Origin: Candidatus Anammoxibacter sp.
GTDB lineage: Bacteria > Planctomycetota > Brocadiia > Brocadiales > Anammoxibacteraceae
Assembly: GCA_021777055.1 (NCBI GenBank)
Contig: JAIQZO010000108.1
Location: 1 to 64,000 of the forward strand
DNA length: 64,000 nucleotides
Direction of reading: 5' to 3'
Shown here: one piece after another, positions 18,968 to 19,077 of the stretch
Layout of the letters: each line of letters opens with the position of its first letter
Numbering within the stretch: position 1 is the first letter of the stretch
Notes under the pieces: model-generated
Told to the model about the DNA's origin: nothing
The model's database searches: none
What the model saw: the letters and a program-made list of their open reading frames with translations, nothing else
Program-made: the position numbers and the translations under genes

Positions 18968-19038
18968 GATAATGGCAAACCTTGAGCAATTGGGGGGCGC
19001 AAAGTAATAGGGTCTTTATAGATAGCCATACTGCCAAA
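18968..19038 (+). ncRNA. Cyclic di-GMP-I (GEMM) riboswitch aptamer
   Basis: GGCAAACC (18974-18981), stem CCUUGA-GCAA(GNRA)-UUGGGG, GGCGCAAAG core, AGGGTCT…ATAGCC, closing UGCC (19032-19035) pairing with GGCA (18974-18977). Confidence 0.82.
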
Positions 19039-19077
19039 GATGTTCCAAAAAACACTTTTGCGGTATGGCTTTTTTTG
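19024..19077 (+). terminator. Intrinsic terminator overlapping the riboswitch 3' side (expression platform)
   Basis: AGCCATAC (19024-19031) pairs perfectly with GTATGGCT (19063-19070), followed immediately by a T7 tract; left arm lies inside the aptamer 3' segment. Confidence 0.78.

What the first reader, a model, noticed from the sequence alone, without database searches (positions are those of the whole stretch)
18968..19077. c-di-GMP-I (GEMM) riboswitch with overlapping terminator in the leader of the 3821-aa secreted mosaic protein
The aptamer hallmarks are present: GGCAAACC, a GNRA (GCAA)-capped stem CCUUGA/UUGGGG, GGCGCAAAG, AGGGTCT…ATAGCC, and a closing GGCA/UGCC helix. A terminator hairpin (AGCCATAC/GTATGGCT + T7) uses part of the aptamer 3' strand as its left arm, so aptamer folding and termination look mutually exclusive, consistent with c-di-GMP turning the gene ON. 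It would link second-messenger signalling directly to a giant vWA/Rhs-type surface protein.
Basis: partly seen in the sequence, partly recalled or inferred. Interest (0 to 1): 0.8.

Follow-up and report, generated by a model that had tools for sequence, protein, structure and literature searches.

The report
c-di-GMP ON-riboswitch for giant surface protein
In an ammonium-oxidising (anammox) bacterium, a small RNA sensor for the signal molecule c-di-GMP sits in front of a gene for a giant surface protein and most likely lets it be made only when the signal is present; the sensor type is well known, but the same sensor-plus-stop-signal unit is repeated dozens of times in related anammox genomes.

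Summary
Rfam's c-di-GMP-I model matches 18964-19038(+) at 51.8 bits (cut-off 35). A hairpin at 19024-19070 followed by six U uses aptamer bases 19024-19034 as its left arm, including the presumed ligand-pairing C (19034). An 11/11-pair arm with a U-tract arose in 1 of 20,000 shuffles. Aptamer and terminator exclude each other, so c-di-GMP should switch the gene ON, as in Geobacter pilM. G20, A47 and C92 are c-di-GMP-type; nothing supports the cGAMP or GGC variants. The gene starts at 19169 (3816 aa) and encodes a secreted protein with Ig-like, RHS and LapA-like vWA domains. The genome is anammox (hydrazine synthase present). Related giant RHS genes in three Ca. Brocadia-type genomes carry the same leader; in Ca. 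Brocadia pituitae the shared strand and hairpin look deleted. Ca. Brocadia-genus genomes hold 19-56 such riboswitches, against 0-5 in sampled Planctomycetota outside the order; 70 of 87 copies have the overlapping terminator (shuffles 0.6). The window's element is a new member of a known kind. The amplified anammox set is the unexpected part. No ligand or termination data exist.

The parts
18964..19038 (+). c-di-GMP-I (GEMM-I) riboswitch aptamer, RF01051
   Evidence: cmscan 51.8 bits, gathering 35, full model 1-87; RF03167 (GGC variant) scores 57.0, below its cut-off of 59
18974..18974 (+). G20 equivalent: ligand-contacting base, G = c-di-GMP type
   Evidence: position 11 of the RF01051 alignment; role from established structures (own knowledge)
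18980..18995 (+). P2 stem CCUUGA/UUGGGG with GCAA (GNRA) loop
   Evidence: Rfam alignment
19001..19001 (+). A47 equivalent (A, not the G of the GGC variant)
   Evidence: CGCAAAG in the alignments
19003..19032 (+). P3: 5' strand 19003-19014, short loop, 3' strand 19021-19032; lacks the 11-nt tetraloop receptor
   Evidence: Rfam alignment; the receptor-type sequence CCUAAG...UAYGG is present in own-genome copy C38 and absent here
19024..19034 (+). shared strand AGCCAUACUGC: 3' strand of aptamer P3 through C92 (19034), and left arm of the terminator
19024..19070 (+). intrinsic terminator hairpin; right arm GCGGUAUGGCU 19060-19070
   Evidence: RNA fold, -23.0 kcal/mol; 11/11-pair arm plus U-tract in 1 of 20,000 shuffles
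19071..19076 (+). U-tract of the terminator
   Evidence: sequence
19169..30619 (+). regulated gene: 3816-aa secreted mosaic protein (N-terminal Cys module, FG-GAP, CARDB-like, vWA, He_PIG/Ig, RHS/YD shell)
   Evidence: Pfam/NCBIfam; length 3816 in the database
24113..24790 (+). vWA domain with MIDAS motif DLSGS and TDG
   Evidence: AlphaFold2 pLDDT 88.6; best PDB match the LapA vWFA domain 9no5, E 8.8e-7, probability 1.00; motif invariant in 11 homologues

Best explanation
A c-di-GMP-I riboswitch acting at transcription as an ON switch. RNA polymerase makes the aptamer (18964-19038) first. If c-di-GMP binds between G18974, A19001 and C19034, the aptamer's 3' strand stays in P3 and the pocket, the downstream arm 19060-19070 cannot pair with 19024-19034, and transcription continues into the giant surface-protein gene. 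Without ligand the 11-bp plus inner-stem hairpin forms and transcription stops at the U-tract near 19071-19077. Shown by computation: aptamer family match, pocket bases, strand sharing, terminator stability, conservation of the arrangement. Inferred: c-di-GMP as ligand, termination in vivo, ON direction, control of this gene.
For: RF01051 51.8 bits. G20/A47/C92 all of c-di-GMP type. The shared strand 19024-19034 contains C92 and pairs 11/11 with the terminator arm. Predicted free energy: the terminator fold wins only once the transcript passes about 19062-19066 (-23.5 vs -16.7 kcal/mol at 19066, -32.4 vs -18.0 at 19070), leaving a window for binding. Same arrangement in 70 of 87 Brocadiales copies with a recognisable 3' strand, 0.6 expected from shuffles. 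The shared-strand change U>A at 19028 (window) relative to the Brocadia consensus is matched in the terminator arm (CAGUAAGGCU to CGGUAUGGCU), and P3 can still pair through U19008. Orthologous leader-plus-giant-RHS-gene in three other genomes. The genome has 8 GGDEF domains. The pilM riboswitch works this way, including capture of the ligand-pairing C by the terminator (PMC9262584).
Against: No binding or termination data. P2 has three G-U/U-G wobbles in a row and the P1 pairing is 2-3 bp, so affinity could be low. Covariation evidence is thin because most copies share one identical arm sequence. Without ligand the family structure is not the predicted minimum fold (-10.7 constrained vs -14.4 kcal/mol). 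No convincing promoter was found just upstream.
Confidence: 0.85

Rival explanations
1. Same ON mechanism but the ligand is another cyclic dinucleotide (3',3'-cGAMP, or an unknown ligand of the c-di-GMP-I-GGC type).
For: The family includes cGAMP-specific GEMM-Ib members (PMC6456294). RF03167 (GGC variant) aligns with more bits (57.0) than RF01051, though below its own cut-off of 59. A few anammox copies have A at position 20.
Against: Window has G at position 20 and A at 47. The GGC variant's consensus has CGCGAA where the window has CGCAAA. 103 of 105 scored Brocadiales copies have G20.
Confidence: 0.08
2. Degenerate or always-off/always-on leader: the aptamer no longer binds well and the hairpin is just an attenuator, or the gene is controlled elsewhere.
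For: Weak P2 and P1 in the window. The B. pituitae ortholog has lost the shared strand and hairpin, so the element can decay. Several truncated copies exist in B. pituitae.
Against: All pocket bases and an unusually perfect terminator are kept; score is 17 bits over the cut-off.
Confidence: 0.06
3. The hairpin is the terminator of an upstream transcription unit and its overlap with the aptamer is coincidence (or the switch is OFF or translational).
For: Genes on the same strand lie upstream (ORF 18320-18586). Own-genome copy C38 has no terminator and probably acts at translation.
Against: Exact overlap with the aptamer strand recurs in 70 of 87 copies vs 0.6 by chance; an OFF switch of Cd1 type has separate aptamer and terminator strands (PMC9262584).
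Confidence: 0.03

Closest known systems
Geobacter metallireducens pilM GEMM-I riboswitch (PMC9262584)
   Same: Transcriptional ON switch; terminator left arm includes the aptamer 3' strand and the C that pairs with the ligand
   Different: pilM senses cGAMP (GEMM-Ib); the window has the G20 of c-di-GMP binders. Different phylum and target
c-di-GMP-I riboswitch, RF01051 (V. cholerae Vc2 type)
   Same: Core sequence, P2/P3 layout, G20/A47/C92
   Different: No 11-nt tetraloop receptor in P3; very short P3; overlapping terminator
c-di-GMP-I-GGC, RF03167
   Same: Short P3 without the tetraloop receptor; related Brocadia leaders pass its cut-off
   Different: Window scores 57.0 against cut-off 59 and lacks the G at position 47 of the model consensus
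LapA-type vWA adhesins of Pseudomonas
   Same: vWA domain fold in a giant surface protein tied to c-di-GMP (LapA is controlled by c-di-GMP after translation; own knowledge)
   Different: Here control would be by a riboswitch; the rest of the protein is FG-GAP/Ig/RHS, not LapA-like

Membership tests
c-di-GMP-I riboswitch (RF01051) | Score above the curated cut-off over the whole model | tested here: met
   51.8 bits vs 35, model 1-87
c-di-GMP-I riboswitch (RF01051) | Pocket bases G20, A47, C92 | tested here: met
   G18974, A19001, C19034 in the alignment
c-di-GMP-I riboswitch (RF01051) | P2 capped by a GNRA loop | tested here: met
   GCAA 18986-18989
c-di-GMP-I riboswitch (RF01051) | Tetraloop receptor in P3 (common, not universal) | tested here: not met
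   P3 ends in a short loop, no CCUAAG...UAUGG
c-di-GMP-I riboswitch (RF01051) | Binds c-di-GMP | not testable with these tools
   needs in-line probing or ITC
c-di-GMP-I-GGC (RF03167) | Score above cut-off | tested here: not met
   57.0 vs 59
c-di-GMP-I-GGC (RF03167) | G at position 47 (CGCGAA) | tested here: not met
   CGCAAA. That 'GGC' denotes G20/G47/C92 is my reading of the consensus; the defining paper is not held
GEMM-Ib (cGAMP) | A at position 20 | tested here: not met
   G18974
Transcriptional ON riboswitch | Terminator shares a strand with the ligand-bound aptamer | tested here: met
   19024-19034
Transcriptional ON riboswitch | Ligand lowers termination | not testable with these tools
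   needs a transcription assay

The most novel reading that the evidence does not exclude
Anammox bacteria of the Ca. Brocadia group have multiplied one c-di-GMP ON-switch (aptamer plus strand-sharing terminator) to dozens of copies, so that one second-messenger rise co-induces a large set of surface proteins, glycosyltransferases and regulators. The window shows that the unit, together with its giant vWA/RHS target class, is shared with another anammox family. This would be a main RNA-based switch for aggregation or biofilm growth in anammox bacteria.
Probability: 0.5. Interest if true: 0.7.

Novelty: new member of a known kind. Interest (0 to 1): 0.5.

Why it matters
Anammox bacteria grow as granules and biofilms and have few genetic tools, and searches of the open library found no paper on riboswitches in them (subscription papers are not covered). 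A c-di-GMP switch directly on giant surface-protein genes gives a specific, testable link between second-messenger level and the cell surface. The 19-56 copies per Ca. Brocadia genome compare with 17 GEMM-I riboswitches reported for G. sulfurreducens (PMC6456294).

Tried and rejected
Single-sequence AlphaFold of the vWA segment gave a meaningless model (pLDDT 40); with 11 homologues it worked. Pfam did not detect the vWA domain even at E up to 1, and a sequence search of the PDB found nothing. The generic terminator scan missed the hairpin because its loop limit is 8. Formal three-way covariation of P3, shared strand and terminator arm was weak: own-arm pairing 9.9 of 11 vs 9.3 for arms of other copies, since most arms are identical; only the window and BP_3305259 give clear paired changes. 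A first, lax overlap test had 17 expected by chance of 87; the strict test (10 of 11 pairs) brings this to 0.6. microRNA-family matches near the leaders of relatives are long inverted repeats, not microRNAs. The cGAMP and GGC readings were considered and rejected on the pocket bases.

Full report
Observation. Rfam's c-di-GMP-I model matches window 18964-19038 on the + strand with 51.8 bits (curated cut-off 35, E 3.1e-7 for 64 kb against all 4227 families); nothing else in the window reaches a curated cut-off. The match runs the whole model. P2 is CCUUGA/UUGGGG with a GCAA loop (18980-18995), G18975-C18976 pair with G18999-C19000, and P3 is 19003-19014 with 19021-19032. A hairpin spans 19024-19070 (-23.0 kcal/mol alone) and is followed by U19071-19076. 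Its left arm, 19024-19034, is the 3' strand of P3 plus the two bases up to C19034, the equivalent of the C that pairs with the ligand. Given the shared strand, an 11/11-paired arm followed by a U-tract appeared in 1 of 20,000 dinucleotide shuffles of the downstream DNA.

The 'closing GGCA/UGCC helix' is not part of the family structure. It appears in the predicted ligand-free fold of the aptamer segment, where it would occupy G20 and C92. The gene most likely starts at ATG 19169 (GTGGGGGATAAAGAGATG), giving 3816 aa; the same protein is held at that length in the protein database.

Ligand. The bases known to read the ligand in this class (own knowledge, Vc2 numbering) are G20, A47 and C92. The window has G18974, A19001 and C19034. 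The cGAMP subclass has A20, and the consensus of the Rfam GGC variant has CGCGAA where the window has CGCAAA. The window scores 57.0 with RF03167, below its cut-off of 59. c-di-GMP is therefore the expected ligand, not a tested one. The genome has 8 GGDEF domains.

Mechanism. Constrained folding of growing transcripts shows the aptamer-compatible fold within about 1-4 kcal/mol of the best fold until the transcript reaches about 19062, after which the terminator takes over (-23.5 vs -16.7 kcal/mol at 19066; -32.4 vs -18.0 at 19070). Ligand binding has to happen in that window. This is the logic measured for the G. metallireducens pilM riboswitch, an ON switch in which aptamer and terminator exclude each other and the terminator captures the ligand-pairing C (PMC9262584). 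Vienna energies take no account of the tertiary contacts or the ligand, so they support the order of events only.

Where it is. Hydrazine synthase alpha is present in the genome and in 36 of 46 genomes examined of the same order. Loci found by protein search name the relatives as Ca. Brocadia pituitae, Ca. Brocadia sp. BIN37 and Planctomycetia bacterium H5_AMX3. The window thus comes from an anammox bacterium (order Ca. Brocadiales), in a family (f1) other than that of the Brocadia genomes (f5).

Target. The protein has a signal-like N-terminus, a duplicated Cys-containing N-terminal module, FG-GAP and CARDB-like stretches, Ig-like He_PIG repeats and an RHS/YD-repeat C-terminus with an RHS-associated core. 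A domain at about residues 1640-1870 was modelled with 11 homologues at pLDDT 88.6. Its best match in the PDB is the vWFA domain of the LapA adhesin (9no5, E 8.8e-7), and DxSxS and TDG are invariant in the homologues. About 60 residues follow the RHS core, and no toxin domain was recognised there.

Conservation of leader and gene. The N-terminal module has relatives in three Brocadia-type genomes, and a 2204-aa database protein, P0013, combines this N-terminus with NHL repeats and an RHS C-terminus. All three genomic loci encode P0013-like giant RHS proteins. Two have a riboswitch above cut-off just upstream, with the strand-sharing terminator. The third, B. pituitae, has a degenerate aptamer (25.1 bits), and the sequence AAAGACAG-GCTTTTTTTG reads as a deletion of the shared strand and hairpin, which should leave the gene permanently on. 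A comparable loss of terminator control has been reported for pgcA in G. sulfurreducens (PMC6456294). Two of the three loci show frame breaks in this gene; these are draft genomes and may contain errors.

The wider pattern. Members of the Brocadia genus (g6) have 19-56 RF01051 matches per genome; the window's genome has 3. In a sample of 100 genomes from the phylum, genomes outside the order had 0-5. Among 87 distinct Brocadiales copies with a recognisable 3' strand, 70 have a terminator arm pairing at 10 or more of 11 positions with a U-tract, against 0.6 (maximum 3) in shuffles. The typical unit is AGCCUUACUGCCGAAGAUG...CUUUGCAGUAAGGCUUUUUU. In B. pituitae the next gene downstream is usually on the same strand and includes Ig/PKD/cadherin-type giants, a kelch protein, an autotransporter, glycosyltransferases, a polysaccharide epimerase, an amidase, a cytochrome c', two sigma-54 activators, a caspase/PEGA protein and one transposase. 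In the window's genome all three riboswitches precede large ORFs: 3816, 1510 and more than 2240 aa.

What is shown and what is not. Shown: family match, pocket bases, strand sharing beyond chance, recurrence of the unit, shared leader-gene association. Inferred: ligand, direction, use in vivo, regulon behaviour. The covariation evidence for the shared strand is limited because the arm hardly varies.

Verdict. The element itself is a new member of a known kind. The dozens of copies in anammox genomes were not found described in the open-access library, but subscription papers, including the one that defined the GGC variant, could not be read, so priority is not claimed.

Noticed in passing
G000:C47, L091 881-976 and 1278-8000: An ON-type c-di-GMP-I riboswitch about 300 nt upstream of a polyketide synthase ORF of more than 2240 aa (AprA MT2-like, KS, DH, ACP domains) in the window's own anammox genome.
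   Followed up: partly
G000:C38, L001 1501-1591(-), L090: A canonical Vc2-type c-di-GMP-I riboswitch (81.3 bits, GAAA loop and 11-nt receptor, no terminator) 56 nt upstream of a 1510-aa PKD/cadherin adhesin; probably translational control.
   Followed up: partly
L068 near G031:2823848, L076 near G031:128046, L088, L089: A few anammox copies appear to have A at position 20, the cGAMP-type base, among mostly G20 copies; they may bind another ligand.
   Followed up: no
L046-L087 (G031), P3 insertions: Many Brocadia copies carry P3 insertions made of AAACNGTTTAAACCG-like repeats that differ in length between copies.
   Followed up: no
L071, L084, L087 (G031:836106, 3564238, 663299): Truncated riboswitch copies end at the same GGGTCTTT site and continue into a shared CACCGCAAAGACGCTAAGG repeat, as if a dispersed repeat had replaced the 3' half.
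   Followed up: no
L059 (G031:328048): One B. pituitae riboswitch precedes an IS transposase gene, possibly an insertion between switch and target.
   Followed up: no
G000:C100, L037/L094: A second gene with the same N-terminal module in the window's genome has no riboswitch match within 1.5 kb upstream.
   Followed up: partly
window 3204-16791: Three large ORFs in a row (1975, 1167, 1378 aa) with almost no Pfam matches; only a PLD-like domain in the third.
   Followed up: no
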